Shown one piece after another: positions 10,619-28,395 of a stretch of DNA of 64,000 nt. A model generated the notes under the pieces. It had not been told where the DNA came from, ran no database searches, and saw only the letters and a list, made by a program, of their open reading frames with translations. The stretch's first letter is position 1; every line of letters begins with the position of its first letter. The translations under genes and the position numbers were made by a program. The DNA comes from Euphorbia lathyris (Eukaryota; Streptophyta; Magnoliopsida; Malpighiales; Euphorbiaceae): the NCBI RefSeq assembly GCF_963576675.1, contig NC_088910.1:26972531-27036530 (forward strand). Reading direction: 5' to 3'.

Positions 10619-10620
10619 AG

Positions 10621-10632
10621 TGGTATCAGAGT
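10621..10632 (+). promoter_or_regulatory. Primer-binding site for initiator tRNA-Met
   Basis: TGGTATCAGAGT matches the complement of plant initiator tRNA-Met in 11 of 12 positions and sits two bases after an LTR end. Caulimovirids use the same primer, but this site lies about 900 bp outside the viral repeat, so it belongs to the LTR element. Confidence 0.65.
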
Positions 10633-11515
10633 AAATGTTCTATCTTAAACGTATAACTATCATTATTTTATTTTTTATCGTTCAAATTATTGTGAGAGGA
10701 GATAAATTCGTCAATAATAAATTATTAATAAAAATTGAAATAAGAAAAAACTAGAGGGAGAAACTTCTCAATAATTGAGATGAAATATAAACTTTTATTA
10801 GTAATTTGATGATAAATTAAAAAATAGATTTTGTTATAAACTTTTCTTTAAGTTAAAAATCTAATAAATGAATATGTTGGAGATATAGTTAACATTTATA
10901 AGCTATATAAAATTGTTGAAATTCCATGGTAGAGATTTCATTAATTTCTAGAAACCTTGAAACAAGAATTACAGTCACTTTAAAAAAAAAAAAAAAAATT
11001 ACAGTCACTTTGTGATTTGTGAATGGTAAGTAGTATTTATTACATAACAACTTTGTCCGTTACTTTCAACCATGTGGGACGCAAGATTGCTATGCTAAGC
11101 TTTAGCCAGTTGGCACTTATCTTTGTTTGTGGTAGGAAACTTAATGGAAAGCGCCCACGCCTTTAACGCGTTTCGAACCTCTTAGTCAGCCACTTTTAGT
11201 AGTTGGATGTCAACCACGTTTTGCCCCTTTTAAGAAATGTCTGACGTCACTATTTCCCATCTTCCTTTCCTACTTCACTTTCACCAGTACAATTCACAAA
11301 TAAAAACATCTGGCCATCCTTTTTTCAGTTTTTCTATTATTATTATTATATACTTTGATAAAAAAAAAATCTATAATTTACTTTTATTTATGATAATAAA
11401 TAAATTTAATATCAATATAAATAATTCTAATTAAACTTTAAAAATTAAAAGGAAAATAATTTTTGTTTAGAAAGTAGAGATTTAAGAAAAAACTATTAAG
11501 AATAAATTACCATTT
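10633..11515. other. Internal remnant of LTR element or intergenic DNA
   Basis: Non-coding, AT-rich. A small tandem duplication containing AATTACAGTCACTTT flanks a poly-A run at about 10966-11012. The block ends at the sharp border with the viral inverted repeat at 11516. Confidence 0.4.
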
Positions 11516-12312
11516 TATGTGGACCGTTTTTTCTGATGTGTATAATGTGTGCAGGATCGCTCTTATGACCCTAAAAAGGGTAGGAAGACAAACGACTGCT
11601 GAAGTAAACATTGTTAAATGAAATTTAACATCCATAATATATTAAACCTTTAAGTGTAACTAATGATAACAAATTAATTTAATTAGAACAAGAGTTATAG
11701 AGGAACTCTAGTATACCTTTCAAAGCAATCCTCAGTGGAGACTTCTGAACTCTGCCTGACACCCTCTCATCATCATCATGGGTTATGGCTGTGTTCCAGC
11801 ATCTCTACACACCTCTTGGATTTGTCTGAAGGCTAACTATTGTTGCTTTATAACTCTGGATCTTTTTAAACTAATATGCTATACGGAAGTTAAACTTAAG
11901 TAGTTAACAACTATGGATGCTAAAAGGGGAAGTTTAGAAAGCCATGGATATAGAGAGAAAGAAAGCTTTTATTGCTCAAAGCAAGTTATATCTCATACAT
12001 CATATGTCTTCTCCTTATATAGGTAGAAGATCAAAGGTGAAATTACCAAAAAGGAGATTACATCATCACAAAAGTTAAAAGTACAAACTTTTAGGTTACA
12101 CGTGTCGAATGCTTCTTATTTTGCTCTTCCACCTCAAGCTTTACATCTTGCCACTAATCTCTAATGTTTCCACCTCATGCTTCTTCTTTGGACACATGTC
12201 TCTTCATATCTTCATGTCTTGCCACGTGTTGATCTTATTGCCACCTTTTCTTTAGGTATTGACACCTCGTTCTTATATTTCTTATTTTTCTTATCCATTT
12301 TTATCTCATTTT
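11516..12312 (-). promoter_or_regulatory. Viral large intergenic region, left copy
   Basis: This is the mirror of 25128-25924. It holds the viral promoter with TATA at 12013-12021 (minus strand), a candidate poly(A) signal at 11968-11973, two CACGTG cores upstream, and about 450 bp of leader. Transcription would run leftward out of the viral DNA into the copia remnant, not into the viral genes. Confidence 0.7.
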
Positions 12313-13413
12313 CTAAATAAATGGATCCTCCTCTTTTCTTGGATGGGCTTCTTCTTTGGGCCTTATGGAGTCAATATTCATGGGCTCAGGTCTTATGGGC
12401 TCAATTCTAATTAAACATGATTTTCTTGAGCCATATATAGATTCATAATGGGCTAATGTATCTGAACTATGTTTATATTTCTTATCCATCAATTTCGTAT
12501 GCATTTCTATCAAAATTTGTTGACTCGTTTCATCACCCATTTCCATTAAATAGTTGATAGTTATCATTTCTTCAACTTCTCCATGATTCGATCTGGCTAT
12601 TATAGCCACCTTTTTATTTCTAATATAGTCTTCGAGTCTACATTTGATCGTATGGATTCCATGTGCTCGTTTTTCTCCTAACCAAGATTTAAAATTTTCT
12701 AATTTGCATGGAATGTCCCATTGATGGTCGGAATTATCTACATCAATCTTAGTGTTTCTACCAGTCTTAAAAATCTGAGCAATTATTATCGGTTTCCCTT
12801 CTAAGTCCATAGCAGCATCAAAAATTTGAACACAAAATATTCCTCTTCCAAATCTTAATCCAAGTTCGTCAATGGATCTGGGTATGATAGATGGGAGTTT
12901 TGAAACACTATTAAGGCTCTCATCAGTCATGACTTTGTCCAGAAATCCATATCGAAATAGTTTCTGAACAACATCTGGACTGCAGTCTTCTGAGCATATA
13001 TACCTAGGGTATTTGGTCATCTTAATGGTTCTATATACGGTTTGACTCTTCTTATATGTAAAAAATTTCATGATATTCTTATATGCTTCTGTCATTTCTG
13101 GAGGGAATTGTATAACCTGGGAGGTTGTGATTTCTGATGAGTTCTGATTAATCAGCTTAGAATGGTTCAAGGTGGTGGCTCCTGAGAGTCCACTAGATGA
13201 AGTTGGCAGCTCAATTGGCTTCTTATGAAGATCTCCTAACAACTCATAAGATGATCTAGGAGTCATGGTTCGTATATTCTGATTGTTCTGAGACTGGAGT
13301 TTCTTGAGTTCTTCCTCAAGGTTGTCCAGAAAGTTCTCATGATTTCTGATCATTGCCAGCATCTGGCGGTTCTGATTTCTGATTTCTGATATTCGCTGGA
13401 TCATTATCTCCAT
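12313..13413 (-). CDS. TAV-like protein of endogenous caulimovirid, left copy
   Basis: The 366-codon frame sits last in the genome, where caulimoviruses and soymoviruses place the translational transactivator/viroplasmin. In the family, that protein forms cytoplasmic inclusion bodies and lets ribosomes reinitiate on the polycistronic RNA. The N-terminus is predicted coiled coil (about residues 1-45). A conserved-looking core lies at about 185-290 (GRGIFCVQIFDAA). Its start overlaps the end of Pol by 77 nt, so an internal start is possible. It differs from the right copy by one residue near position 331 (Ser here, Pro there). The product call rests on position and size more than on motif. Confidence 0.65.
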   Translation of the reverse strand: MEIMIQRISEIRNQNRQMLAMIRNHENFLDNLEEELKKLQSQNNQNIRTMTPRSSYELLGDLHKKPIELPTSSSGLSGATTLNHSKLINQNSSEITTSQVIQFPPEMTEAYKNIMKFFTYKKSQTVYRTIKMTKYPRYICSEDCSPDVVQKLFRYGFLDKVMTDESLNSVSKLPSIIPRSIDELGLRFGRGIFCVQIFDAAMDLEGKPIIIAQIFKTGRNTKIDVDNSDHQWDIPCKLENFKSWLGEKRAHGIHTIKCRLEDYIRNKKVAIIARSNHGEVEEMITINYLMEMGDETSQQILIEMHTKLMDKKYKHSSDTLAHYESIYGSRKSCLIRIEPIRPEPMNIDSIRPKEEAHPRKEEDPFI

Positions 13414-15259
13414 TCCTGCTCAAAAAATCAGCTAAGATATTTCGTTTTCCAGAGATAGGTTTAACAACAAAATTATAGCAATTGAAAAAACTTTGCCAAT
13501 GCCTTCTTTTGTTCAATTCTGGTAGGGGATCTATTTTATTTCTGATAAATGCTCCTACTTGTGTATTATCTGTTCTTATGATAAATTCTATAGGTAACAA
13601 ATGATACCTAAATCCTTTAATTCCATTTTTAACAGCTAGTAATTCTTTTTCATTGATATGATAATTTTTCTCTGAGGGTTTCCAAGTTCCTGATCTATAG
13701 CCACATATTAAAGGAGTTTCTTTGTCTATATCTTCTTTTCTATATGCGATGAGTACTGCTCCCCACCCGATATCACTAGCATCTGTATATAATTCTAATT
13801 GATCATTATCTTTAGGTAGTCTTAATTTTGGGAGAACTTTTACTGCTTCTTTTATTTTTCTTATAGTATCAGTGTGAGTTGTCGTCCATTCAAATACTTT
13901 ATGTTTCTTAATTAGCTCTTGCAAGGGTTGTCGTAATTTTGGTAAGTCTTTTATATAATCTGATGCATAATTTATTATTCCTAGAAATTGTTGGACTTCT
14001 TTCTTAGTATCTAATTTTTCTTTAAAATTTTCGATTCTAGTTACGATATGATCTTGTAGTTGTAATCCTTCACTATCTATTATATATCCTAAATATTCTA
14101 TTTTATTTTTAAAGATTTCTGATTTCTTTTCAGATAAAAGGATTCCATGTTGTCGTACTGTTTTTATAAATGCATCTAGGTGCTGTAAATGGTCTGCTAT
14201 ATTATTGCTATAGATTAATATATCATCGACATAAACTACACAGAAGTCATTTAATTTTCTAAATATCGTATCCATTCGTCGTTGAAATATCTGGGGTGCA
14301 TTTTTCAAACCAAAAGGTAACACAATCCATTCATAATGTCCTTGTGGTGCACTAAATGCTGTTAAAGGTCTTGATTCTTTAGTAAGCTTAATTTGCCAAA
14401 AGCCACTTTTACAATCAAATTTACTAAACCACTTTTTTCCTGATAATCTATTAATTAAATTTCTCTTATAAGGTAAAAAATATCCATCAAAAATCGTTTT
14501 CTTATTTAGTTCTCGATAATCTATTACCATTCTTGCTTTGCCTCTCTTTTGTTCGCTATGTTTTCTTACTAAGAATGCCGGGCTACTATGAGGGCTTTTA
14601 CTTTCTTGAATTAATTTTAAGTCTAATAATTCTTTTATTTGTATTTCAAATTCCTTTTGATCATCAGGACTATATCTTATTGGTCTAGTGCGAACAACAT
14701 CATTAGGGTTTATGAGTTCTATCTTAGCATATATCTTTTCTTTTTCCCACAACGTTATAGGGTTTTCTCCAAAGTTGATCTTTAAATGGTCTAAATATTT
14801 TTGTTTTAAAAGTTCTAAATTAGTATCTCTATTTGTTTTGATATTATGTATTGTGAGTGGATATAAAGGTAGGACGCGCTTAAGGATAATCCATTTATTA
14901 CAAGGAGTTAAAAGACTTATGGTTTCAGGTTTGATTAGCTGGACTTTAAAGAAATCAAGAAAATTATTTCCTAATAATATATGTTGTTTCATATTATTTT
15001 CTTGATAAATTATGGGTAATCGAAAGATTGTCTTGTTAAGTATTAATCTCATATTTTCGGCTATAATATCTAATTCTTTCATTTGTTCATTAAATCCTGT
15101 AACTCTGACCTTATGTCCTTTAGATCTTTTCCATTTATGGGAAACTAGTACATCTTGCTTCGCTAAACATATATCAGCTCCACTATCTATAAATATGCGG
15201 CGTTTTATAATCTTATTAGGTTTATATTCTACCGGTGCTTCTACATATATGGCTACCAT
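13337..15259 (-). CDS. Caulimovirid polymerase (protease-RT-RNase H), left copy
   Basis: This intact 640-codon frame has the family's full set. A retropepsin-like aspartic protease carries DSGAD at about residues 25-29 and a matching ILLGNNFL at about 94. Reverse transcriptase carries YVDDIL at about 343. RNase H carries YTDAS at about 491 and a later RTDNT. Length fits caulimovirus/soymovirus ORF V (about 650-700 residues), and there is no integrase, as expected. The start codon overlaps the CP stop by one base, which suits termination-reinitiation. The protein is identical to the right copy. The frame has no visible damage. Confidence 0.95.
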   Translation of the reverse strand: MVAIYVEAPVEYKPNKIIKRRIFIDSGADICLAKQDVLVSHKWKRSKGHKVRVTGFNEQMKELDIIAENMRLILNKTIFRLPIIYQENNMKQHILLGNNFLDFFKVQLIKPETISLLTPCNKWIILKRVLPLYPLTIHNIKTNRDTNLELLKQKYLDHLKINFGENPITLWEKEKIYAKIELINPNDVVRTRPIRYSPDDQKEFEIQIKELLDLKLIQESKSPHSSPAFLVRKHSEQKRGKARMVIDYRELNKKTIFDGYFLPYKRNLINRLSGKKWFSKFDCKSGFWQIKLTKESRPLTAFSAPQGHYEWIVLPFGLKNAPQIFQRRMDTIFRKLNDFCVVYVDDILIYSNNIADHLQHLDAFIKTVRQHGILLSEKKSEIFKNKIEYLGYIIDSEGLQLQDHIVTRIENFKEKLDTKKEVQQFLGIINYASDYIKDLPKLRQPLQELIKKHKVFEWTTTHTDTIRKIKEAVKVLPKLRLPKDNDQLELYTDASDIGWGAVLIAYRKEDIDKETPLICGYRSGTWKPSEKNYHINEKELLAVKNGIKGFRYHLLPIEFIIRTDNTQVGAFIRNKIDPLPELNKRRHWQSFFNCYNFVVKPISGKRNILADFLSRNGDNDPANIRNQKSEPPDAGNDQKS

Positions 15260-17262
15260 TAGTTATTAGTTTCACTATCTTCATATTCTATTGGTTCTAA
15301 TTCTTCTGAGTTCTCACCTTCTGTTTCAGTAATATAAAATTCATCTTCTTTATGCCATTTATCATCGCTGGCTCTTATTTGTTCTAGACTCATTATAAAT
15401 TCTGTTGTTCCTATATATTTGACACCTTTTTGTTTTAATTTAGGGCATTTATTAGCATAATGTCCTTTCTCATTACAATTCCAACATTTACATTCTGTAA
15501 GTTTAGTATTTTTATCCCTTAGTGGTCTTTCTCGTCTTTTCCTAAATTTTCGTTTATATCTAAATCTGTTCCGATTTTCGGGATTATTTTTATATCGTCT
15601 AAATCGTTTTCGTCGAAATCGTCCATTATCATACTTGTTAGTATAAGACTTCTTATATGTCGGATTATGTCTATAAGTGCGATTAGGAGTATATCGTCTA
15701 TATTTTCTCCTAATTTTATCATCACAACCAAAAACTAACCGTTTTTCCGTGAATCCACATATTTCTCGTAACCCGAGTTTCTTATCCTTTTTAACCTTTT
15801 GTTGAACTCTATATTCTTCACATTTTCGCATAAGATAAGCTCGTAGTACTCTAATTCTTTCTCCTAATGTATTTTCTTTTGGTTCTAATTGAGTATATTC
15901 TTTTGAAACTTCTACGTTGTATGGGTTTGGTAAGTGGTCATAATATAGTTGTTGGTATATCAATCCTTCTTGTGGTAAAAACCTAGCTTCATAAAAGAAC
16001 TTAGTAAAACTGATAGTATATTCTGGTAATTTACTAATTTTACAACATTTCATGTTATTCAAATTCATTATTATTTCAGCTTTTCTTTCAGCAAATACTG
16101 TTTCTCTAGCCACTAACCATCTTTCTCCTAAAAATTCTCTTTTTAATACCATATCGAATAATAATAACATTGATTTCCAATCATGAGCACAAGCTTCTAT
16201 TTGTGGTCTTAACTGATGAGTTATTGATTCCATCCAAAATCCTACTTTTCCTATCATTGTTTTAGATATTAGGTCATACATATAGTCTAAATTTTCAGTG
16301 TGAGATGAATTCATTAAGGCTATGTACATTCCTAAATTCCAATCATTTATTCGTCTACTTATTTCTTGTTCATCATAGACATTATCTAAGTCTAAAAAAT
16401 ATCCATTTGGATTTAATCCTTGAGACATAGATCCTATAAATTCTTTAAAGTCTCCTTGTTGGCCTATAGGTATATGTTGTGGAATCGTAGGTACTCTTTT
16501 AGTTACTACGTCTAAATTGGGGTCTATCATTTCTTCTTCTGGATAATTATCGGCATCTTCGTTTACTATATTTTCTGATCCTATATCTGATTCTTCATAC
16601 CTAGTGTATTTGTTGTTGTATTCGTTGTTTTCTATATCACTTTCTGGTTCTTCTTCTATTATTGCATTAATGTTCTTCATTTGTTCTAATGCTTTCATTA
16701 TTTGATGATTTTCTTCTATTAATTTTGTTTCATCTTTATTTTCTTCTTCTATATACCCAATGATTTTTAGTTTATTTTCACTTTGAGTATCTGAACTATC
16801 TGAACTATCACTACTACTGTTACTGATGTGAATAGTTTTCCCTTTTACTTCTTTAACCATTGTTCTTAAGACTCTTACTTCTTCCTTTAATTCTTTTAAT
16901 TCATCTGTAATGTGGATTAGCTCTGTTTTTGTTTGTTTTAATTCTAGCTTTGTTTCTTTTAATTCTTTTTTAGTATTTTTAAATTTGTGTTTATATTTTT
17001 TATATTTTTCGACCCATTCTGTACTCGAATTTATGACTAATTTTATGTTTTCTTTTTGTAGGTCTTTGATTTCTTTATGTTGTTTTTCGATTTTTAGTTG
17101 AAGGTATTCGGCTTCGGTGCTTACGTCTACATTGGATGGTTTAGCATCATTGTCTTTGAGTTTGCTGTTTTTTAGCGGTTCATATTTGTATTTTTCCTTT
17201 TCAATAATTTCTTGGGCGTGATTTTTAAGAAATGTTATTACACTATGTTCTTGTTCGGCCAT
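15259..17262 (-). CDS. Caulimovirid coat protein with zinc knuckle, left copy
   Basis: The 667-codon frame has an acidic, coiled-coil-prone N-terminal third with a serine-rich patch (SSSDSSDSSDTQS). A globular middle follows, then a very basic stretch (about 515-580) with repeated Arg/Lys/Tyr, and a gag-type CCHC knuckle (CWNCNEKGHYANKC) at about 592-605. An acidic tail ends the protein. This is the layout of caulimovirid CP precursors, whose acidic arms are trimmed in the particle. It is intact and identical in protein to the right copy. It lies between the VAP-like ORF and Pol as in CaMV-type genomes. Confidence 0.93.
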   Translation of the reverse strand: MAEQEHSVITFLKNHAQEIIEKEKYKYEPLKNSKLKDNDAKPSNVDVSTEAEYLQLKIEKQHKEIKDLQKENIKLVINSSTEWVEKYKKYKHKFKNTKKELKETKLELKQTKTELIHITDELKELKEEVRVLRTMVKEVKGKTIHISNSSSDSSDSSDTQSENKLKIIGYIEEENKDETKLIEENHQIMKALEQMKNINAIIEEEPESDIENNEYNNKYTRYEESDIGSENIVNEDADNYPEEEMIDPNLDVVTKRVPTIPQHIPIGQQGDFKEFIGSMSQGLNPNGYFLDLDNVYDEQEISRRINDWNLGMYIALMNSSHTENLDYMYDLISKTMIGKVGFWMESITHQLRPQIEACAHDWKSMLLLFDMVLKREFLGERWLVARETVFAERKAEIIMNLNNMKCCKISKLPEYTISFTKFFYEARFLPQEGLIYQQLYYDHLPNPYNVEVSKEYTQLEPKENTLGERIRVLRAYLMRKCEEYRVQQKVKKDKKLGLREICGFTEKRLVFGCDDKIRRKYRRYTPNRTYRHNPTYKKSYTNKYDNGRFRRKRFRRYKNNPENRNRFRYKRKFRKRRERPLRDKNTKLTECKCWNCNEKGHYANKCPKLKQKGVKYIGTTEFIMSLEQIRASDDKWHKEDEFYITETEGENSEELEPIEYEDSETNN

Positions 17263-17266
17263 TAGA

Positions 17267-17701
17267 TTAGAATTGTCCTTTTTTGTGTAAATCGGTTAAC
17301 AGATCTAAGTTTTTATTTACGGTTGTAGGGATTTTAGGTTTTATTTCACTTATATCCATCATTATTGGGTCCTTGCTTCGTCTCCAAACATCTATGGGTA
17401 CTATTTCTGGAGTTTTAGTTTGTGTTATAGTAATGTTTAGATTTTCTCCTGAGGTAATGCTACAGCTTTCTTCTATGGGTCTTTTTCTTTTGTCTATATT
17501 AGCTACTAACATGTTTAATTTTTCCAAAATTATCTTAAACGTTGGTATTTCCGATGTATTCCACAGTTTTGTTAATTCATGTGTTATCATTTCTTGGATT
17601 TGAATATGGTTTTCTTGTATTAAACTAAGAGTATTCTTTAATTGTTCTTTTGCTACAATCTCTATCCATATTTGGTCCAATTTTTGGTTAGGATCACTCA
17701 T
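17267..17701 (-). CDS. VAP-like small protein, intact left copy
   Basis: A 144-codon frame directly before CP, the slot of the virion-associated protein (129 residues in CaMV ORF III). The N-terminal half is helical and likely coiled coil, and the C-terminus is basic and proline-containing. In the family, VAP anchors to the capsid by its C-terminus and bridges to movement and vector functions. This copy is open, whereas the right copy has a stop at codon 19. Four changes separate them, three of them substitutions after the stop (G/E, V/A, N/T). Function is inferred from position. Confidence 0.65.
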   Translation of the reverse strand: MSDPNQKLDQIWIEIVAKEQLKNTLSLIQENHIQIQEMITHELTKLWNTSEIPTFKIILEKLNMLVANIDKRKRPIEESCSITSGENLNITITQTKTPEIVPIDVWRRSKDPIMMDISEIKPKIPTTVNKNLDLLTDLHKKGQF

Positions 17702-17834
17702 CTTTGTAGATTCTTTTTATCCATCCGTCTTCAAGTTTGATCCATTCTTTCTTAGGTGGTTCTAATAAAGAGTTTAATTGTTTGATTTCACATTCTAGTC
17801 TCTGTTGTTTAGATTCAATTTCTAAATATTTTAG
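17694..17834 (-). pseudogene. Truncated 75-codon coiled-coil ORF at repeat junction
   Basis: Only the last 46 or so codons of the ORF seen whole at 19519-19746 are present. The frame is cut at the inversion breakpoint at 17834, so no start codon from the parent gene survives. The remaining bases match the right copy. Confidence 0.8.
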
Positions 17835-17873
17835 CAGAGACAATCATAGAATCTCAACTAAAATATTTAGAAA
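17819..17873. repeat. Inversion breakpoint with 16-bp hairpin arms
   Basis: TTTCTAAATATTTTAG (17819-17834) is the exact reverse complement of CTAAAATATTTAGAAA (17858-17873), with a 23-base loop. The segment 17834-17873 is also a 40-bp direct copy of 19582-19621. After 17873 the sequence switches to the viral leader before the first ORF. The pattern fits a fold-back or template-switch join. Confidence 0.85.
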
Positions 17874-17940
17874 AGTAGAAATGATTAAATGCCTAATTAA
17901 TTTCACAATCGTGATTTTTCAGAATTATACACACTAGATA

Positions 17941-18264
17941 ATGGATATACCAGTTGAAAGTCTTAGGATTATTGCTGAAAAACCATTAATTTATAATCAG
18001 GATATCAATCAACATATTATAAGTTGTAGAAGAGCATTACAAATTATGGAATTAAAAGATAGACAATTAGAAGTAGCACAAGGTGCTTTAGATGCTAAGC
18101 GTATTGAAAAGATAAAATTACAAAAAAGAGTTTTTGACTTAGAAGATGAAGTAAAACGATTAGAAGAAAAACATAGAGAGCAAGAAGAGACAATAGAAAT
18201 TCAAAAACAAATAATTACTGAAAGTTACAGACATATTCAAGTTTTAATCAATGGAAGAGAATAA
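17941..18264 (+). CDS. Small coiled-coil viral ORF before the movement protein
   Basis: The 107-codon frame opens the viral coding block. Residues about 45-100 are heptad-rich and highly charged (for example RVFDLEDEVKRLEEKHREQE), so a long coiled coil is expected. I see no motif that names it. The position recalls the small ORF VII of CaMV, but the sequence gives no proof of homology. Its end overlaps the movement-protein start by 14 nt. It is present once only, in the loop between the two arms. Confidence 0.6.
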   Translation: MDIPVESLRIIAEKPLIYNQDINQHIISCRRALQIMELKDRQLEVAQGALDAKRIEKIKLQKRVFDLEDEVKRLEEKHREQEETIEIQKQIITESYRHIQVLINGRE

Positions 18265-19522
18265 AGAAATAACAGAACAAACCCATACAGAAAATACTAA
18301 TATCTACTATCAAATGGATACTTATGAAGGTGGTATAACTCAAACTTTAAGTTTTAAACCAGATATTTATCAGAAAATACAAGATGAAACTGAAGAGCTA
18401 TCTGTAAATAAGATATTTAAAACAAAATGGTTTGAGAGAAATAAAAATATACGATATATTGTTCAGAAGCATGAGAATATTATAGATACAACTACTATAA
18501 ATGGTAGAGCAAGGATAAATTTAATAACAAATGACGTAATAAAAAGAGAATTATCCAAATTATCACATAAAGAAGCAAAGAAATATAGGAATATTTACTT
18601 TGGAGGAATAGAATTCACTATAAAAGCATATTTTCAGAAAAATATCGATACTCCTATTCAAATATATGTATTAGATGATAGAATATTAGATAATATCCAA
18701 GATGCCTTAATAGCAGTAGTAAGAGGAAACTTAATTTATCAGAAACTTAAATTCACAATTCAACCAGATTTTAGTATCTCATTAGAAGATAAACATAAAG
18801 ATCTAGCTTTAACACTCTATTATAAATTAGAAGGAATAAGAATGCCCCCAGGAAGTAAAGTAATTAGTATAGAAACAAAAATGATATATGCCCTTACAGG
18901 TAATCATCATATCAGAAAACAAAATGATAGGGATATATTAGTACCAAAATTATATCAGGAAATATTAGAACCACTAGAACATAAGGAAAATTCCATCATA
19001 ACAATACCAGACGAAATATGTATAGATTTTAATTCTAGAAAACTACAACCAATCCAGAAATTATTACCTAGGATAGAAGGAGGAAGGTTAAGTTTTAAGA
19101 AAGACATAATAAGACAACCGAGAACATTAGATTTATTACATACATATTATGAAGATAAGTTACGAATAAAAGTAATATTATTTAATGAGCTACGAGCAAC
19201 TGACTGTATAGCTGAAATTAATACAGGAACCAAAAGTTTAGTACATATTAGCCAAATAAATGAGAATAAATGTGAACTAATCGAACCACAAACTTATAAC
19301 TGTCCAAATAGTACAAGAGAAATAATCATAACTAAAAGCATAAGAATTAGATTTAAAATTCAAGATCTAGAATATGAGATAATTGTAGGAGTAACAGAAT
19401 ATGATAGTACATATGCACTATTATTAGGATACGACTTTTTAAATAAAATAAAATATAAGATAAATAATGAAGGAATTACGATAGAGGACCAAAACAAAAT
19501 ACGGTATATAAATAAAATATGA
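18251..19522 (+). CDS. Viral movement protein (30K type) with protease-like tail
   Basis: The 423-codon frame carries a 30K-superfamily movement domain at about 80-230, with IDTPIQIYVLDDRI at about 132-145, the region holding the conserved aspartate. Such proteins line plasmodesmata with tubules for cell-to-cell passage. The C-terminal part (about 305-400) is unusual: AEINTGTK at 321-328 and LLGYDFL at 391-397 resemble the DSGAD and ILLGNNFL strands of the protease in Pol, but the catalytic Asp-Thr/Ser-Gly is not intact. It therefore looks like an inactive retropepsin fold. The stop overlaps the next ORF start as ATGA. It is a single copy, open throughout. Confidence 0.8.
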   Translation: MEENKEITEQTHTENTNIYYQMDTYEGGITQTLSFKPDIYQKIQDETEELSVNKIFKTKWFERNKNIRYIVQKHENIIDTTTINGRARINLITNDVIKRELSKLSHKEAKKYRNIYFGGIEFTIKAYFQKNIDTPIQIYVLDDRILDNIQDALIAVVRGNLIYQKLKFTIQPDFSISLEDKHKDLALTLYYKLEGIRMPPGSKVISIETKMIYALTGNHHIRKQNDRDILVPKLYQEILEPLEHKENSIITIPDEICIDFNSRKLQPIQKLLPRIEGGRLSFKKDIIRQPRTLDLLHTYYEDKLRIKVILFNELRATDCIAEINTGTKSLVHISQINENKCELIEPQTYNCPNSTREIIITKSIRIRFKIQDLEYEIIVGVTEYDSTYALLLGYDFLNKIKYKINNEGITIEDQNKIRYINKI

Positions 19523-19746
19523 ACATACGACAACAACTTGATAAAAAAGAGAAAAAATTACAAATAATAAAAACTATTATGGCAGAGACAATCATAGAAT
19601 CTCAACTAAAATATTTAGAAATTGAATCTAAACAACAGAGACTAGAATGTGAAATCAAACAATTAAACTCTTTATTAGAACCACCTAAGAAAGAATGGAT
19701 CAAACTTGAAGACGGATGGATAAAAAGAATCTACAAAGATGAGTGA
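19519..19746 (+). CDS. 75-codon coiled-coil viral ORF
   Basis: A small lysine/glutamate-rich frame between MP and the VAP-like ORF, starting inside the MP stop (ATGA) and overlapping the next ORF by 8 nt. Its predicted structure is mostly helix with heptads. The position is that of caulimovirus ORF II (vector transmission factor), but it is much shorter and shares no motif I can see, so function is unassigned. The right arm of the inverted repeat begins within it at 19606. Confidence 0.55.
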   Translation: MNIRQQLDKKEKKLQIIKTIMAETIIESQLKYLEIESKQQRLECEIKQLNSLLEPPKKEWIKLEDGWIKRIYKDE

Positions 19747-20173
19747 TCCTAACCAAAAATTGGACCAAATATGGATAGAGATTGTAGCAAAATAACAATT
19801 AAAGAATACTCTTAGTTTAATACAAGAAAACCATATTCAAATCCAAGAAATGATAACACATGAATTAACAAAACTGTGGAATACATCGGAAATACCAACG
19901 TTTAAGATAATTTTGGAAAAATTAAACATGTTAGTAGCTAATATAGACAAAAGAAAAAGACCCATAGAAGAAAGCTGTAGCATTACCTCAGAAGAAAATC
20001 TAAACATTACTATAACACAAACTAAAACTCCAGAAATAGTACCCATAGATGCTTGGAGACGAAGCAAGGACCCAATAATGATGGATATAAGTGAAATAAA
20101 ACCTAAAATCCCTACAACCGTAAATAAAACCTTAGATCTGTTAACCGATTTACACAAAAAAGGACAATTCTAA
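19739..20173 (+). pseudogene. VAP-like ORF, right copy, stopped at codon 19
   Basis: Same ORF as 17267-17701, but codon 19 is TAA (19793-19795) where the left copy has GAA. Translation could only restart at an internal ATG (19850), giving a 107-residue product without the first part of the coiled coil. Three further amino-acid differences from the left copy follow. CP begins 5 nt after its stop. Confidence 0.85.
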
Positions 20174-20177
20174 TCTA

Positions 20178-22181
20178 ATGGCCGAACAAGAACATAGTGT
20201 AATAACATTTCTTAAAAATCACGCCCAAGAAATTATTGAAAAGGAAAAATACAAATATGAACCGCTAAAAAACAGCAAACTCAAAGACAATGATGCTAAA
20301 CCATCCAATGTAGACGTAAGCACCGAAGCCGAATACCTTCAACTAAAAATCGAAAAACAACATAAAGAAATCAAAGACCTACAAAAAGAAAACATAAAAT
20401 TAGTCATAAATTCGAGTACAGAATGGGTCGAAAAATATAAAAAATATAAACACAAATTTAAAAATACTAAAAAAGAATTAAAAGAAACAAAGCTAGAATT
20501 AAAACAAACAAAAACAGAGCTAATCCACATTACAGATGAATTAAAAGAATTAAAGGAAGAAGTAAGAGTCTTAAGAACAATGGTTAAAGAAGTAAAAGGG
20601 AAAACTATTCACATCAGTAACAGTAGTAGTGATAGTTCAGATAGTTCAGATACTCAAAGTGAAAATAAACTAAAAATCATTGGGTATATAGAAGAAGAAA
20701 ATAAAGATGAAACAAAATTAATAGAAGAAAATCATCAAATAATGAAAGCATTAGAACAAATGAAGAACATTAATGCAATAATAGAAGAAGAACCAGAAAG
20801 TGATATAGAAAACAACGAATACAACAACAAATACACTAGGTATGAAGAATCAGATATAGGATCAGAAAATATAGTAAACGAAGATGCCGATAATTATCCA
20901 GAAGAAGAAATGATAGACCCCAATTTAGACGTAGTAACTAAAAGAGTACCTACGATTCCACAACATATACCTATAGGCCAACAAGGAGACTTTAAAGAAT
21001 TTATAGGATCTATGTCTCAAGGATTAAATCCAAATGGATATTTTTTAGACTTAGATAATGTCTATGATGAACAAGAAATAAGTAGACGAATAAATGATTG
21101 GAATTTAGGAATGTACATAGCCTTAATGAATTCATCTCACACTGAAAATTTAGACTATATGTATGACCTAATATCTAAAACAATGATAGGAAAAGTAGGA
21201 TTTTGGATGGAATCAATAACTCATCAGTTAAGACCACAAATAGAAGCTTGTGCTCATGATTGGAAATCAATGTTATTATTATTCGATATGGTATTAAAAA
21301 GAGAATTTTTAGGAGAAAGATGGTTAGTGGCTAGAGAAACAGTATTTGCTGAAAGAAAAGCTGAAATAATAATGAATTTGAATAACATGAAATGTTGTAA
21401 AATTAGTAAATTACCAGAATATACTATCAGTTTTACTAAGTTCTTTTATGAAGCTAGGTTTTTACCACAAGAAGGATTGATATACCAACAACTATATTAT
21501 GACCACTTACCAAACCCATACAACGTAGAAGTTTCAAAAGAATATACTCAATTAGAACCAAAAGAAAATACATTAGGAGAAAGAATTAGAGTACTACGAG
21601 CTTATCTTATGCGAAAATGTGAAGAATATAGAGTTCAACAAAAGGTTAAAAAGGATAAGAAACTCGGGTTACGAGAAATATGTGGATTCACGGAAAAACG
21701 GTTAGTTTTTGGTTGTGATGATAAAATTAGGAGAAAATATAGACGATATACTCCTAATCGCACTTATAGACATAATCCGACATATAAGAAGTCTTATACT
21801 AACAAGTATGATAATGGACGATTTCGACGAAAACGATTTAGACGATATAAAAATAATCCCGAAAATCGGAACAGATTTAGATATAAACGAAAATTTAGGA
21901 AAAGACGAGAAAGACCACTAAGGGATAAAAATACTAAACTTACAGAATGTAAATGTTGGAATTGTAATGAGAAAGGACATTATGCTAATAAATGCCCTAA
22001 ATTAAAACAAAAAGGTGTCAAATATATAGGAACAACAGAATTTATAATGAGTCTAGAACAAATAAGAGCCAGCGATGATAAATGGCATAAAGAAGATGAA
22101 TTTTATATTACTGAAACAGAAGGTGAGAACTCAGAAGAATTAGAACCAATAGAATATGAAGATAGTGAAACTAATAACTAA
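20178..22181 (+). CDS. Caulimovirid coat protein with zinc knuckle, right copy
   Basis: Identical in protein to the left copy (667 residues): acidic N-terminal region, serine patch, globular middle, Arg/Lys/Tyr-rich basic region at about 515-580, CCHC knuckle at about 592-605 that would bind viral RNA, and acidic tail. It is followed by Pol with a TAATG stop-start overlap. No stop or shift is seen. Confidence 0.93.
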   Translation: MAEQEHSVITFLKNHAQEIIEKEKYKYEPLKNSKLKDNDAKPSNVDVSTEAEYLQLKIEKQHKEIKDLQKENIKLVINSSTEWVEKYKKYKHKFKNTKKELKETKLELKQTKTELIHITDELKELKEEVRVLRTMVKEVKGKTIHISNSSSDSSDSSDTQSENKLKIIGYIEEENKDETKLIEENHQIMKALEQMKNINAIIEEEPESDIENNEYNNKYTRYEESDIGSENIVNEDADNYPEEEMIDPNLDVVTKRVPTIPQHIPIGQQGDFKEFIGSMSQGLNPNGYFLDLDNVYDEQEISRRINDWNLGMYIALMNSSHTENLDYMYDLISKTMIGKVGFWMESITHQLRPQIEACAHDWKSMLLLFDMVLKREFLGERWLVARETVFAERKAEIIMNLNNMKCCKISKLPEYTISFTKFFYEARFLPQEGLIYQQLYYDHLPNPYNVEVSKEYTQLEPKENTLGERIRVLRAYLMRKCEEYRVQQKVKKDKKLGLREICGFTEKRLVFGCDDKIRRKYRRYTPNRTYRHNPTYKKSYTNKYDNGRFRRKRFRRYKNNPENRNRFRYKRKFRKRRERPLRDKNTKLTECKCWNCNEKGHYANKCPKLKQKGVKYIGTTEFIMSLEQIRASDDKWHKEDEFYITETEGENSEELEPIEYEDSETNN

Positions 22182-24103
22182 TGGTAGCCATATATGTAGA
22201 AGCACCGGTAGAATATAAACCTAATAAGATTATAAAACGCCGCATATTTATAGATAGTGGAGCTGATATATGTTTAGCGAAGCAAGATGTACTAGTTTCC
22301 CATAAATGGAAAAGATCTAAAGGACATAAGGTCAGAGTTACAGGATTTAATGAACAAATGAAAGAATTAGATATTATAGCCGAAAATATGAGATTAATAC
22401 TTAACAAGACAATCTTTCGATTACCCATAATTTATCAAGAAAATAATATGAAACAACATATATTATTAGGAAATAATTTTCTTGATTTCTTTAAAGTCCA
22501 GCTAATCAAACCTGAAACCATAAGTCTTTTAACTCCTTGTAATAAATGGATTATCCTTAAGCGCGTCCTACCTTTATATCCACTCACAATACATAATATC
22601 AAAACAAATAGAGATACTAATTTAGAACTTTTAAAACAAAAATATTTAGACCATTTAAAGATCAACTTTGGAGAAAACCCTATAACGTTGTGGGAAAAAG
22701 AAAAGATATATGCTAAGATAGAACTCATAAACCCTAATGATGTTGTTCGCACTAGACCAATAAGATATAGTCCTGATGATCAAAAGGAATTTGAAATACA
22801 AATAAAAGAATTATTAGACTTAAAATTAATTCAAGAAAGTAAAAGCCCTCATAGTAGCCCGGCATTCTTAGTAAGAAAACATAGCGAACAAAAGAGAGGC
22901 AAAGCAAGAATGGTAATAGATTATCGAGAACTAAATAAAAAAACGATTTTTGATGGATATTTTTTACCTTATAAGAGAAATTTAATTAATAGATTATCAG
23001 GAAAAAAGTGGTTTAGTAAATTTGATTGTAAAAGTGGCTTTTGGCAAATTAAGCTTACTAAAGAATCAAGACCTTTAACAGCATTTAGTGCACCACAAGG
23101 ACATTATGAATGGATTGTGTTACCTTTTGGTTTGAAAAATGCACCCCAGATATTTCAACGACGAATGGATACGATATTTAGAAAATTAAATGACTTCTGT
23201 GTAGTTTATGTCGATGATATATTAATCTATAGCAATAATATAGCAGACCATTTACAGCACCTAGATGCATTTATAAAAACAGTACGACAACATGGAATCC
23301 TTTTATCTGAAAAGAAATCAGAAATCTTTAAAAATAAAATAGAATATTTAGGATATATAATAGATAGTGAAGGATTACAACTACAAGATCATATCGTAAC
23401 TAGAATCGAAAATTTTAAAGAAAAATTAGATACTAAGAAAGAAGTCCAACAATTTCTAGGAATAATAAATTATGCATCAGATTATATAAAAGACTTACCA
23501 AAATTACGACAACCCTTGCAAGAGCTAATTAAGAAACATAAAGTATTTGAATGGACGACAACTCACACTGATACTATAAGAAAAATAAAAGAAGCAGTAA
23601 AAGTTCTCCCAAAATTAAGACTACCTAAAGATAATGATCAATTAGAATTATATACAGATGCTAGTGATATCGGGTGGGGAGCAGTACTCATCGCATATAG
23701 AAAAGAAGATATAGACAAAGAAACTCCTTTAATATGTGGCTATAGATCAGGAACTTGGAAACCCTCAGAGAAAAATTATCATATCAATGAAAAAGAATTA
23801 CTAGCTGTTAAAAATGGAATTAAAGGATTTAGGTATCATTTGTTACCTATAGAATTTATCATAAGAACAGATAATACACAAGTAGGAGCATTTATCAGAA
23901 ATAAAATAGATCCCCTACCAGAATTGAACAAAAGAAGGCATTGGCAAAGTTTTTTCAATTGCTATAATTTTGTTGTTAAACCTATCTCTGGAAAACGAAA
24001 TATCTTAGCTGATTTTTTGAGCAGGAATGGAGATAATGATCCAGCGAATATCAGAAATCAGAAATCAGAACCGCCAGATGCTGGCAATGATCAGAAATCA
24101 TGA
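22181..24103 (+). CDS. Caulimovirid polymerase (protease-RT-RNase H), right copy
   Basis: The frame is 640 codons and intact. The aspartic protease has DSGAD near residue 25, RT has YVDDIL near 343, and RNase H has YTDAS near 491. In the family it cleaves the CP and Pol precursors and copies pregenomic RNA to DNA in cytoplasmic inclusion bodies. The lack of integrase means the copies here arose by illegitimate recombination, not by enzyme-led integration. Protein identity with the left copy is complete. Confidence 0.95.
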   Translation: MVAIYVEAPVEYKPNKIIKRRIFIDSGADICLAKQDVLVSHKWKRSKGHKVRVTGFNEQMKELDIIAENMRLILNKTIFRLPIIYQENNMKQHILLGNNFLDFFKVQLIKPETISLLTPCNKWIILKRVLPLYPLTIHNIKTNRDTNLELLKQKYLDHLKINFGENPITLWEKEKIYAKIELINPNDVVRTRPIRYSPDDQKEFEIQIKELLDLKLIQESKSPHSSPAFLVRKHSEQKRGKARMVIDYRELNKKTIFDGYFLPYKRNLINRLSGKKWFSKFDCKSGFWQIKLTKESRPLTAFSAPQGHYEWIVLPFGLKNAPQIFQRRMDTIFRKLNDFCVVYVDDILIYSNNIADHLQHLDAFIKTVRQHGILLSEKKSEIFKNKIEYLGYIIDSEGLQLQDHIVTRIENFKEKLDTKKEVQQFLGIINYASDYIKDLPKLRQPLQELIKKHKVFEWTTTHTDTIRKIKEAVKVLPKLRLPKDNDQLELYTDASDIGWGAVLIAYRKEDIDKETPLICGYRSGTWKPSEKNYHINEKELLAVKNGIKGFRYHLLPIEFIIRTDNTQVGAFIRNKIDPLPELNKRRHWQSFFNCYNFVVKPISGKRNILADFLSRNGDNDPANIRNQKSEPPDAGNDQKS

Positions 24104-25127
24104 GAACTTTCTGGACAACCTTGAGGAAGAACTCAAGAAACTCCAGTCTCAGAACAATCAGAATATACGAACCATGACTCCTAGATCATCTTATGAGTTG
24201 TTAGGAGATCTTCATAAGAAGCCAATTGAGCTGCCAACTTCATCTAGTGGACTCTCAGGAGCCACCACCTTGAACCATTCTAAGCTGATTAATCAGAACT
24301 CATCAGAAATCACAACCTCCCAGGTTATACAATTCCCTCCAGAAATGACAGAAGCATATAAGAATATCATGAAATTTTTTACATATAAGAAGAGTCAAAC
24401 CGTATATAGAACCATTAAGATGACCAAATACCCTAGGTATATATGCTCAGAAGACTGCAGTCCAGATGTTGTTCAGAAACTATTTCGATATGGATTTCTG
24501 GACAAAGTCATGACTGATGAGAGCCTTAATAGTGTTTCAAAACTCCCATCTATCATACCCAGATCCATTGACGAACTTGGATTAAGATTTGGAAGAGGAA
24601 TATTTTGTGTTCAAATTTTTGATGCTGCTATGGACTTAGAAGGGAAACCGATAATAATTGCTCAGATTTTTAAGACTGGTAGAAACACTAAGATTGATGT
24701 AGATAATTCCGACCATCAATGGGACATTCCATGCAAATTAGAAAATTTTAAATCTTGGTTAGGAGAAAAACGAGCACATGGAATCCATACGATCAAATGT
24801 AGACTCGAAGACTATATTAGAAATAAAAAGGTGGCTATAATAGCCAGATCGAATCATGGAGAAGTTGAAGAAATGATAACTATCAACTATTTAATGGAAA
24901 TGGGTGATGAAACGAGTCAACAAATTTTGATAGAAATGCATACGAAATTGATGGATAAGAAATATAAACATAGTTCAGATACATTAGCCCATTATGAATC
25001 TATATATGGCCCAAGAAAATCATGTTTAATTAGAATTGAGCCCATAAGACCTGAGCCCATGAATATTGACTCCATAAGGCCCAAAGAAGAAGCCCATCCA
25101 AGAAAAGAGGAGGATCCATTTATTTAG
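24027..25127 (+). CDS. TAV-like protein, right copy
   Basis: A 366-codon frame overlapping the Pol end by 77 nt in another phase. It has an N-terminal coiled coil and a core like that of caulimovirid inclusion-body/transactivator proteins. The close packing of all upstream ORFs (overlaps of 1-14 nt) is the arrangement that depends on TAV-driven reinitiation. One residue differs from the left copy. Function is inferred mostly from gene order. Confidence 0.65.
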   Translation: MEIMIQRISEIRNQNRQMLAMIRNHENFLDNLEEELKKLQSQNNQNIRTMTPRSSYELLGDLHKKPIELPTSSSGLSGATTLNHSKLINQNSSEITTSQVIQFPPEMTEAYKNIMKFFTYKKSQTVYRTIKMTKYPRYICSEDCSPDVVQKLFRYGFLDKVMTDESLNSVSKLPSIIPRSIDELGLRFGRGIFCVQIFDAAMDLEGKPIIIAQIFKTGRNTKIDVDNSDHQWDIPCKLENFKSWLGEKRAHGIHTIKCRLEDYIRNKKVAIIARSNHGEVEEMITINYLMEMGDETSQQILIEMHTKLMDKKYKHSSDTLAHYESIYGPRKSCLIRIEPIRPEPMNIDSIRPKEEAHPRKEEDPFI

Positions 25128-25924
25128 AAAATGAGATAAAAATGGATAAGAAAAATAAGAAATATAAGAACGAGGTGTCAATACCTAAAGAAAAGGTGGC
25201 AATAAGATCAACACGTGGCAAGACATGAAGATATGAAGAGACATGTGTCCAAAGAAGAAGCATGAGGTGGAAACATTAGAGATTAGTGGCAAGATGTAAA
25301 GCTTGAGGTGGAAGAGCAAAATAAGAAGCATTCGACACGTGTAACCTAAAAGTTTGTACTTTTAACTTTTGTGATGATGTAATCTCCTTTTTGGTAATTT
25401 CACCTTTGATCTTCTACCTATATAAGGAGAAGACATATGATGTATGAGATATAACTTGCTTTGAGCAATAAAAGCTTTCTTTCTCTCTATATCCATGGCT
25501 TTCTAAACTTCCCCTTTTAGCATCCATAGTTGTTAACTACTTAAGTTTAACTTCCGTATAGCATATTAGTTTAAAAAGATCCAGAGTTATAAAGCAACAA
25601 TAGTTAGCCTTCAGACAAATCCAAGAGGTGTGTAGAGATGCTGGAACACAGCCATAACCCATGATGATGATGAGAGGGTGTCAGGCAGAGTTCAGAAGTC
25701 TCCACTGAGGATTGCTTTGAAAGGTATACTAGAGTTCCTCTATAACTCTTGTTCTAATGAAATTAATTTGTTATCATTAGTTACACTTAAAGGTTTAATA
25801 TATTATGGATGTTAAATTTCATTTAACAATGTTTACTTCAGCAGTCGTTTGTCTTCCTACCCTTTTTAGGGTCATAAGAGCGATCCTGCACACATTATAC
25901 ACATCAGAAAAAACGGTCCACATA
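25128..25924 (+). promoter_or_regulatory. Viral large intergenic region, right copy
   Basis: Upstream of TATA there are CACGTG cores at 25212-25217 and 25336-25341 and two 'tgaggtggaa' repeats (about 25263 and 25303), a plausible enhancer. Downstream is the leader of the pregenomic RNA with several short ATG-led frames. No site resembling TGGTATCAGAGC is present between here and 25924, nor in the 67 bp before the first ORF, so the genome appears cut at or near its primer site. Confidence 0.7.
25419..25472 (+). promoter_or_regulatory. Viral core promoter and poly(A) signal, right copy
   Basis: CTATATAAGG at 25419-25427 is a strong TATA box, followed 40 bases on by AATAAA at 25467-25472. A poly(A) signal just after the start site is the arrangement of caulimovirid pregenomic RNA, read past once and used on the second pass. 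In this linear copy the promoter points rightward into host DNA. Confidence 0.65.
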
Positions 25925-26090
25925 GTAAAGGCTACTCCTCCCTTAACCAAAGGTCCAGGGTTTGATCCTCACCTTTGGGAATGGAAAGAATTTTCGTGGC
26001 CAGCAGTTCCACCCATAGAGGTGCAAACCATCTGCGAAAGTGAATAGTCACGCCTGTCGGCGGTGGATACACTTACGAACCCAAATTAAT
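25925..26090 (+). mobile_element. 5'-truncated tRNA-derived SINE at viral border
   Basis: Directly after the viral end comes a SINE-like body: CTTAACCAAAGGTCCAGGG followed by a box B-like GGTTTGATCCT, then a GGAATGGAAAGAATTTTCG block and GTGAATAGTCACGCC, as in plant SINE bodies. The box A head is missing exactly at the viral junction and is not found at the left border. Confidence 0.45.
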
Positions 26091-26396
26091 TATTTTAATA
26101 ATTTAATTAATATTTCATTTATTATAATGAAAAAATCTCGAGCCCCGGCAGGCGGCCAGAGAATTGAGAATTTTTTTAGTAATGGTGTCTGGTAATATTT
26201 TGGAGAGAATTATATTGACTCTATGTAGTATTATATCAATGTTTAAAGGTATATGAGATGGTTAAGGATACTTATTTTTATTTAAGAGTTCTTATGTTCG
26301 GCTCTTTTCAACCTCATTTTCTTTCAAAAAGTTTTTATTTATTTTTATTTTATTTTTCAATAATTATAAAAACATGTTACCATTATTAATTAATTT

Positions 26397-26688
26397 AAAT
26401 GGACTCTTTATTTTTTATTTTGATAATACTTTTGAATTCATTTTTTTTTGGTTAAACCATCCGGCACTCCGAACCACATTTAGCCGACTAATCCGGATTC
26501 GGGACGGGTCCAAGGATTACGGTATTTACGGTATTTAAACCGAAATGGACTCTTTATTTTTTATTTTGATAATACTTTTGAATTCATTTTTTTTTTTGGG
26601 TTAAACCATCCGGCACTCCGAACCACATTTAGCCGACTAATCCGGATTCGGGACGGGTCCAAGGATTACGGTATTTAAACCGTTCCCA
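26397..26688. repeat. Tandem duplication, period 146 bp
   Basis: The block starting AAATGGACTCTTTATTTT at 26397 recurs at 26543. Each copy carries the 3' part of a SINE (minus strand) plus its flank. The second copy continues into the full SINE. Confidence 0.8.
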
Positions 26689-26768
26689 ATCGCCATTGTG
26701 GGGGATCGATCCTGAGACCGCCCTACTAAGCGTAGCCCCATGATACCACTGCGCCAACCAACGATTAG
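26592..26768 (-). mobile_element. tRNA-derived SINE with 19-bp target duplication
   Basis: On the minus strand there is a box A-like TGGCGCAGTGG (26756-26746) and a box B-like GGATCGATCCC (26712-26702), the internal RNA polymerase III promoter of tRNA-derived SINEs. TACTTTTGAATTCATTTTT flanks both sides (26573-26591 and 26769-26787). No coding. Confidence 0.8.
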
Positions 26769-27149
26769 TACTTTTGAATTCATTTTTAATATGTCTTTAC
26801 CATTAAAAAAAATAGACATATTTAATATTCATTTTTATTATGTCTTTGCCATTAAAAAAAGTAAACATGTTTGATTTTCTATTAGTTCAATGCTAGTTTC
26901 TAAAAAAATGATAACATTTTTACAGTTTTAATGCGTTGAAGGCTAAAAATTTTTTGCTCTGGACTTTAAAAATTTACCATCAACCGTACAATTAATTTCG
27001 ATTTTTTTTTACGTTTTGAAATTTTTTTTACTGATATGTTTGAGTCCCGGGTCATCCGAGGTCTTGATTCTGCCACTGTTCAAGTTTAAAGGGAAAAAAA
27101 CAGATTAGCTTTTTCTATTTTAGTTAAGGCTTCTCCCAACTTTTTAAAC

Positions 27150-27654: not shown

Positions 27655-27748
27655 TTTAAAAATGTTTTCATTGTTAACTAAGTTACCCCTGTAATATTTA
27701 TTCAAAATATAGTGAATTGGATGTGAATTTAGAAAATGAAAATAAGCA

Positions 27749-27749
27749 A

Positions 27750-27793
<44 letters not shown>

Positions 27794-28200: not shown

Positions 28201-28395
28201 TGTAACATCCTGGCTCAATACCATGTAGATATTGTCCATTTTGATCCAAATCTAACACATTAGACCTCACGGCTTTAAAACGCATCTTCATATATTGGAT
28301 TCTCACCTTACTAATAAGCCACATTTACTCTCAATGTGGGATTCAGTTCATTTATGTCCTCATCACCATCCCTTAGGGCCTCTTTTTGCTCAGTA
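28201..28395 (+). repeat. TRIM/solo-LTR-like repeat, copy 1 (truncated)
   Basis: TGTAAC start, then ATGTAGATATTGTCC, CCTCACGGCTTTAAAACGC and GATGTGGGATTCAGTTCATT-like blocks shared with 34313-34560 and 42546-42783. It breaks off after a TTGCTCAG block, so the 3' end is lost. Confidence 0.6.

What the first reader, a model, noticed from the sequence alone, without database searches (positions are those of the whole stretch)
11516..25924. Head-to-head endogenous pararetrovirus forming a 6.3-kb near-perfect inverted repeat
The arms 11516-17834 and 19606-25924 are both 6,319 bp and mirror images, with only a handful of differences seen and CP and Pol protein-identical. The spacer is 1,771 bp and carries the only MP gene. 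A transcript crossing it would fold into a multi-kilobase double-stranded RNA covering CP, Pol and TAV. That is the form of a natural RNA-silencing locus against a related virus. Endogenous pararetroviruses are known to yield small RNAs, but a hairpin this long and uniform is unusual. Near-identity also implies a recent origin, or arm-to-arm conversion.
Basis: partly seen in the sequence, partly recalled or inferred. Interest (0 to 1): 0.88.

Follow-up and report, generated by a model that had tools for sequence, protein, structure and literature searches.

The report
Mirror-image virus copies in plant chromosome
A plant chromosome carries two nearly identical copies of a plant virus joined as mirror images, one of many such pairs in this genome, and the way they end suggests they were captured from virus DNA while it was being copied; whether they make virus-silencing RNA is untested.

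Summary
In detail: arms 11516-17834 and 19606-25924 are 6,319 bp and differ at 7 sites; CP and Pol are protein-identical. It is a caulimovirid provirus, and not singular: a CP tag has 232 places in the host genome (1.02 Gb), and among the 100 listed, neighbours within 16 kb are head-to-head 15, tail-to-tail 9, direct 26. Unlinked copies are almost as alike as the arms, and each of the 7 differences is private to one arm, so arm-to-arm conversion is not needed.

Both outer ends lie at one viral place, the tRNA-Met primer-binding site (PBS), missing from this provirus but read in other copies. Minus-strand DNA starts there. Other copies break there too (7 of 30 loci within 9 nt, against 4 in the next 1,272 nt). 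In four other head-to-head pairs the arms share variants not seen in the other sequences compared. Best reading: a fold-back product of reverse transcription, captured by end joining with loss of host DNA.

The silencing-locus idea is possible but untested: the viral promoters point outward, so a hairpin RNA needs a host promoter. Inverted-repeat proviruses giving 22-nt RNAs (tomato) and a head-to-head provirus (cotton) are already published.

The parts
11508..17834 (-). left viral copy (arm), viral sense on the minus strand; 11508-11515 is viral sequence (AAATGGTA read on -) reaching into the primer-binding site
11516..12312 (-). left intergenic region; mirror of 25128-25924, promoter pointing left (outward)
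12313..13413 (-). 366-aa ORF in the position of TAV (no Pfam match; name by position only)
13337..15259 (-). Pol: caulimovirus peptidase A3, RT, RNase H
   Evidence: right-arm copy against solved structures
15259..17262 (-). coat protein, Caulimovir_coat_dom (zinc-knuckle hit just below the Pfam cut-off)
17267..17701 (-). 144-aa small ORF between MP and CP; the same place in the right arm reads as shorter ORFs
17834..17873 (+). 40-bp templated filler, copy of 19582-19621, at the centre; can fold back on the left arm end
   Evidence: junction unique in genome
17874..25924 (+). right viral copy, 8,051 bp of a unit of about 8,321-8,324 bp; lacks the 273-bp stretch that begins 3 nt before the PBS in other copies
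17941..18264 (+). 107-aa small ORF upstream of MP
18251..19522 (+). movement protein, single copy in the spacer
20178..22181 (+). coat protein, right copy
22181..24103 (+). Pol, right copy
24027..25127 (+). 366-aa ORF in TAV position, right copy
25128..25924 (+). right intergenic region; TATATAA at 25419, AATAAA at 25467, pointing right (outward); ends 3 nt before where the PBS stands in other copies
25925..26085 (+). host dispersed repeat (tRNA/SINE-like by eye), cut: the 21-22 nt before it, recognisable in 8 of the 9 other copies looked at, are missing here

Best explanation
A young caulimovirid provirus integrated as a head-to-head inverted pair. Shown: both outer ends stop at the tRNA-Met primer site, where minus-strand DNA begins (that last point is established knowledge of the family); the centre is a unique join with a 40-bp templated filler; host repeat sequence is missing at the right border. 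Inferred: minus-strand DNA primed at the PBS grew to within about 270 nt of a full circle (17874), its 3' end folded back near viral position 19606 and copied itself out to its own 5' end, leaving a hairpin with the MP region as loop and two ends at the PBS; the host joined it into a chromosome break by end joining. Working mode, inferred and untested: the locus gives no complete viral RNA from its own outward promoters; a host transcript entering from either side would cross both arms, meet the AATAAA of the far arm, and fold into a 6.3-kb double-stranded RNA that Dicer-like enzymes can cut.
For: Viral sequence after 25924 in a tandem copy is AAA then TGGTATCAGAGC. Ends at this place recur: 9 of the 40 full-length matches; in 30 loci, 7 breaks at +0..+8, 3 in the next 264 nt (one is probably an indel), 1 in the next 1,008 and none in 19 (binomial P 1e-13 for 7 of 10, the indel dropped). 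Genome-wide 158 exact upstream 25-mers and 120 PBS-spanning 31-mers; 32 of 100 listed sites lack the intact 31-mer, sites with SNPs and short duplications included. A second pair has both outer ends at +6, C4:41.40M. In 4 of 4 other pairs compared over 868 bp (12 sequences in all) the arms share 1 to 5 variants (indel bases counted singly) seen in no other sequence there, and differ from each other by 0, 1, 0, 0; at C1:63.08M both arms lack the same 225 bp. Among 14 two-copy clusters 8 are -+, ours among them (expected 3.5, P 0.010). Centre stem z -6.9. Repeat 5' end lost.
Against: For this pair itself the shared-variant test is silent: no variant exclusive to both arms was found in the parts compared. 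Head-to-head over tail-to-tail among all inverted neighbours is not significant (15:9, P 0.15). Identity within pairs is not always above that between loci: two other head-to-head pairs have 99.53% and 99.37%, against 99.36-99.75% between loci. PBS ends are a trait of the whole family, not of head-to-head pairs alone, and one tail-to-tail pair (C4:13.33M) joins PBS end to PBS end, as ligation of two molecules would. The two outer ends here differ by 8 nt. No small-RNA, RNA-seq, methylation or read data were available.
Confidence: 0.6

Rival explanations
1. Two separate linear viral DNAs, each opened at the minus-strand gap, were ligated head to head by host end joining before or during integration.
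For: Copies ending at the PBS are common; arrays mix direct, head-to-head and tail-to-tail neighbours; a PBS-to-PBS tail join exists; bacterial/plastid-type 16S DNA is joined to a PBS end at C1:52.788M, as in end-joined filler.
Against: Does not by itself predict that arms of one pair share variants absent from the other sequences, unless both molecules came from the same strain of one infection.
Confidence: 0.3
2. One provirus was inserted first and later duplicated in inverted orientation by the host, or the arms were homogenised by gene conversion.
For: Arms 99.89% identical.
Against: The duplicate would have had to stop at the same viral end, at the PBS, next to different host DNA; unlinked copies are nearly as alike; all 7 differences are private single-arm changes, about 5.5e-4 per site per arm against about 3.4e-4 singletons per site per copy in the set (my arithmetic), so no sign of conversion.
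Confidence: 0.07
3. Assembly artefact.
For: Long near-identical inverted repeats and high-copy families are hard to assemble; no reads were available.
Against: Host flanks differ on the two sides, the arms differ at 7 sites, the centre is unique, and comparable pairs with different centres stand on several chromosomes.
Confidence: 0.03

Closest known systems
eCPRVE of upland cotton, chromosome A04 (PMC10458927; abstract and passages read)
   Same: about 15-kb locus of two head-to-head caulimovirid copies on opposite strands, nearly identical
   Different: 98.98% identity and interrupted ORFs there; here 99.89% over the arms, CP, Pol and TAV-position ORFs open, arms of unequal extent, hundreds of sister copies
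Tomato TSAs: rearranged inverted-repeat endogenous caulimovirids with dense 22-nt siRNAs (Valli et al. 2023; paper not held, known here only through the review PMC10377300 section 3.5)
   Same: inverted-repeat endogenous caulimovirid able to give hairpin RNA
   Different: siRNAs shown there; no expression data here
Endogenous RTBV-like segments of rice (PMC526188; passages read) and tobacco EPRVs as cited there
   Same: viral ends at the intergenic region and at DNA discontinuities, read as integration after reverse transcription
   Different: here ends are resolved to within 9 nt of one point at the PBS in near-identical young copies
Mu killer of maize (PMC3440606; start of abstract seen in a search listing)
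   Same: inverted duplication proposed to give about 4-kb hairpin RNA by read-through from a flanking gene
   Different: a transposon that it silences; here a virus and no function shown
CaMV hairpin DNAs made during reverse transcription (Turner and Covey; recalled, not found in the library)
   Same: self-primed hairpin viral DNA with its open end at the minus-strand start (recalled)
   Different: episomal products in infected plants, not chromosomal copies (recalled)

Membership tests
Caulimoviridae (endogenous caulimovirid) | MP, caulimovirid coat domain, A3 protease, RT and RNase H in one genome of 7-10 kb | tested here: met
   unit about 8,321-8,324 bp from array spacing
Caulimoviridae (endogenous caulimovirid) | tRNA-Met primer-binding site | tested here: met
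   absent from this provirus except a partial trace at its left end; present right after 25924 in other copies
Caulimoviridae (endogenous caulimovirid) | no integrase-type target-site duplication | tested here: met
   none seen by eye in 50 border bases; host repeat lost its 21-22-nt start
a named genus of Caulimoviridae | close Pol identity to a named member | tested here: not met
   named viruses at 34-43% identity among the 120 best of 783 hits; 73-78% only to four unnamed contigs
TSA / hairpin-siRNA provirus | inverted-repeat provirus | tested here: met
TSA / hairpin-siRNA provirus | transcribed across both arms | not testable with these tools
   no RNA data; viral promoters point outward
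TSA / hairpin-siRNA provirus | 22-nt siRNAs from the locus | not testable with these tools
   no small-RNA data
fold-back (hairpin DNA) origin | both open ends at the minus-strand start | tested here: met
   second case C4:41.40M
fold-back (hairpin DNA) origin | both arms from one molecule | tested here: inconclusive
   pair-exclusive variants in 4 of 4 other pairs compared; none found for this pair

The most novel reading that the evidence does not exclude
In this plant, reverse-transcription hairpins of a pararetrovirus are captured again and again with their open end at the PBS, so that the virus's own copying errors plant ready-made hairpin-RNA loci: heritable RNA-based immunity loci would arise as a by-product of viral replication rather than by later rearrangement.
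Probability: 0.3. Interest if true: 0.75.

Novelty: new variant of a known kind. Interest (0 to 1): 0.5.

Why it matters
How caulimovirid DNA is captured is called speculative in the review read (PMC10377300 section 3.1). Here a very young, high-copy family keeps its joins fresh: ends can be placed to within a few nucleotides of the site where viral DNA synthesis starts, and many head-to-head centres with different joins can be compared. That makes the question 'rearranged in the host, or folded during reverse transcription?' directly testable, and with it the origin of hairpin-RNA loci against viruses.

Tried and rejected
Rejected: foldback sequencing artefact (the flanks are not mirrored); arm conversion (see rivals); retroviral-type integration (no target-site duplication seen, host sequence lost). 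Led nowhere: IMG/VR scans for Pol relatives found none; the phage collection had no match; Rfam and tRNA scans of the window were empty; the left-flank genome search did not complete, so an empty site was not sought.

Limits of the counts: one search lists 100 of 232 places, C1 to early C4, so the orientation counts rest on 100. Of the eight two-copy -+ clusters I looked at seven, ours included, and not at C1:14.92M. C4:41.40M and C5:95.05M were picked because they have PBS ends and are no independent support for that trait. The -+ excess in two-copy clusters was tested after it was seen, and our pair is one of the eight. One search used 21 of 28 other loci, those covering at least 1,900 bp. 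The per-site numbers are locus readings, some of them the same copy held twice. In one search the copy measured in L023 is the neighbour on the other strand; both run through the PBS.

In print: hairpin DNA with CaMV and reverse transcription, 0 papers; pararetrovirus / inverted / snap-back, 113 papers with two of three terms, 10 listed, none to the point. That recurrent fold-back capture is not described rests on these and only, in a library that lacks most subscription journals.
Full report
Observation. The inverted repeat is real in the sequence: arms 11516-17834 and 19606-25924, 6,319 bp, 7 substitutions, no indel. CP and Pol are protein-identical, the TAV-position protein differs at 1 residue, and all three are open in both arms. 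Pfam gives MP in the spacer and, in both arms, the caulimovirid coat domain and peptidase A3-RT-RNase H. The 366-aa ORF is called TAV by position only. The best solved relative of Pol is an 'Enzymatic polyprotein', 8r0s. Named viruses reach 34-43% identity in Pol among the 120 best of 783 hits; the nearest sequences, 73-78%, are on four unnamed contigs. CP has seven relatives at 52-65%, none named.

Host. The window lies in a plant genome of 1.02 Gb in 33 contigs, C1:26972531-27036530. It carries a DREB1/CBF-type gene at 30112-30822. The top hits by E-value are longer proteins at 50-59% identity (Nyssa, Linum, Anisodus); among hits covering 99% or more the most alike are Euphorbiaceae (Ricinus, Vernicia, Jatropha, 69-70%). 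I do not name the species.

A large young family. A 28-base CP tag with up to 2 mismatches has 232 places, reversed control 0. Seven other loci were fetched at Pol. The two that are collinear and in the same orientation over 3,820 bp (L002, L008) differ from the arms by 1-2 bases; three on the opposite strand (L004, L006, L007) differ among themselves by 3-4; two (L003, L005) are broken inside the stretch. Over 24000-25924, 21 other copies and the two arms give pairwise differences of 0-8, median 3; the arms differ by 2. At each of the 7 arm differences one arm is alone and every other reading (6 to 34 per site, some the same copy held twice) has the other base: the right arm is odd at 4 sites, the left at 3. 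So the arms are not unusually alike for this family, and conversion is not needed. About 5.5e-4 private changes per site per arm, with a recalled plant rate near 7e-9 per site per year, suggests some 10^4 to 10^5 years; this is rough.

Orientation. In 62 copies from two searches, 33 neighbour pairs within 20 kb are direct 20, head-to-head 8, tail-to-tail 5. In the first 100 CP-tag places, within 16 kb: direct 26, head-to-head 15, tail-to-tail 9 (one-sided P 0.15 for head over tail); the 14 two-copy clusters are -+ 8, +- 2, ++ 3, -- 1. Array spacings of 8,321-8,325 give the unit length; the C1:132.75M array has 8,652-8,653, and the one intergenic region read there has a second PBS 329 nt downstream of the first.

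The ends. The tRNA-Met PBS is not in this provirus (the nearest one-mismatch match, at 10621, lies in the left flank). From the known caulimovirid layout (recalled) I expected the outer ends to lie there and fetched a tandem copy: after 25924 it reads AAA and then TGGTATCAGAGC. The left arm reads 8 nt further, AAATGGTA, before host DNA. Of the 40 full-length matches, 9 stop at this place. In the 30 of them held as loci with flanks, 7 break at +0..+8, 3 in the next 264 nt (one probably an indel), 1 in the next 1,008, and 19 not at all in the stretch read. Genome-wide the exact upstream 25-mer has 158 places and the PBS-spanning 31-mer 120; of 100 listed 25-mer places 32 lack the intact 31-mer, which includes some with an indel or a 28-bp duplication.

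Other head-to-head pairs. I looked at ten, ours included. Inner joins in viral (window) coordinates: ours 19606|40-bp filler|17874; C2:38.92M 18001|19586; C1:101.12M 21418|18934; C1:63.08M 19190|18504; C3:8.93M 18478|18497; C5:95.05M 19744|19781; C4:41.40M 23511|33 nt into the PBS-side stretch; C2:31.26M, C4:8.03M and C2:70.09M are more complex, the last a divergent subfamily. All differ, so I take them as independent events. At least one outer end lies within +0..+9 of 25924 in eight of ten, both in two (ours, C4:41.40M); but C4:41.40M and C5:95.05M were picked for PBS ends. Of the other seven five have one (C2:38.92M, C2:31.26M, C1:63.08M, C3:8.93M, C4:8.03M) and two none (C1:101.12M, C2:70.09M); with about three in ten ends at the PBS in general this is no clear excess.

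One molecule or two. Over 20160-21027, in 12 sequences, arms of one locus differ by 0, 1, 0, 0 in four other pairs and 0 in ours, while different loci differ by 1-11; each of the four pairs carries 1 to 5 variants (indel bases counted singly) found in both its arms and in no other sequence compared. At C1:63.08M both arms lack the same 225 bp. Against this, the identity within pairs at ten other loci, nine head-to-head and one tail-to-tail, ranges from 98.8 to 100% over 425-5,078 bp, with a further inverted stretch of 640 bp in L075 at 95.2%; the lower ones (C2:31.26M 99.53%, C2:70.09M 99.37%, the tail-to-tail pair 98.82%) are not above the 99.36-99.75% found between loci, although C2:70.09M is itself only 86-99% like the window copy. 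On balance this favours a single parental molecule, or two sister molecules of one strain. In our pair no variant exclusive to both arms was found, so it cannot tell.

Mechanism. Minus-strand DNA starts at the PBS; both outer ends here are that start. A strand that runs nearly the whole circle to 17874, folds back and copies itself would give two PBS ends, arms of equal reach, and a single-copy loop holding MP: the anatomy seen. The 40-bp filler at the centre, a copy of 19582-19621, can form a 16-bp stem with the left arm's end, as a slipped primer or a templated repair insert would. Ligation of two linear DNAs is the chief rival. Integration looks like end joining: the right border cuts a dispersed host repeat whose preceding 21-22 nt, recognisable in 8 of 9 other copies inspected (seven closely, one with more changes, one not at all), are gone and were not found in 9000-11515, where only chance-level matches came up; no target-site duplication shows by eye.

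What it could do. TATATAA at 25419 and AATAAA at 25467, with their mirror images on the left, point outward. The copy's own promoter therefore lies after its genes, and neither arm's promoter reads through the centre. A transcript starting in either flank would cross both arms and meet the far AATAAA. So a hairpin RNA is possible only with host read-through; this is inference. Literature: tomato inverted-repeat proviruses have dense 22-nt siRNAs (review PMC10377300, section 3.5 read; original not held), and cotton has a head-to-head locus at 98.98% whose transcription was unclear to its authors (PMC10458927, abstract and passages). Rice segments ending at discontinuities were read in the same sense earlier (PMC526188, passages).

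Noticed in passing
48861-58911: Ty3/gypsy LTR retrotransposon with LTRs of 491 bp, 97.8% alike, pol (protease, RT, RNase H, integrase) on the minus strand and an extra 448-aa ORF (PF04195) on the plus strand.
   Followed up: no
25419-30822: The right copy's outward promoter points at a DREB1/CBF-type gene (30112-30822) on the same strand, 4.7 kb away; an effect on that gene is conceivable.
   Followed up: no
L035 1912-2363 (C1:52.788M): A PBS-terminated viral end is joined to bacterial/plastid-type 16S rRNA sequence (Rfam RF00177), at the end of a cluster of at least 16 copies over about 128 kb.
   Followed up: partly
L080 585-697 (C4:13.33M): Tail-to-tail pair joining one copy's 25924 end to the other's with 11 bp between.
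   Followed up: partly
L009 105-445: The intergenic region read in the C1:132.75M array has two primer-binding sites 329 nt apart; array spacing 8,652 instead of 8,321.
   Followed up: no
L078, L079 (C2:70.09M): A divergent subfamily copy pair: 86-99% identical to the window copy by region, arms 99.4% to each other.
   Followed up: no
window 19793-20130: Four of the seven arm differences fall in 338 bp between MP and CP (P 0.016), while other copies vary little there; unexplained.
   Followed up: partly
26397-26677: Two 149-bp tandem copies, 97% alike, in the right flank.
   Followed up: no
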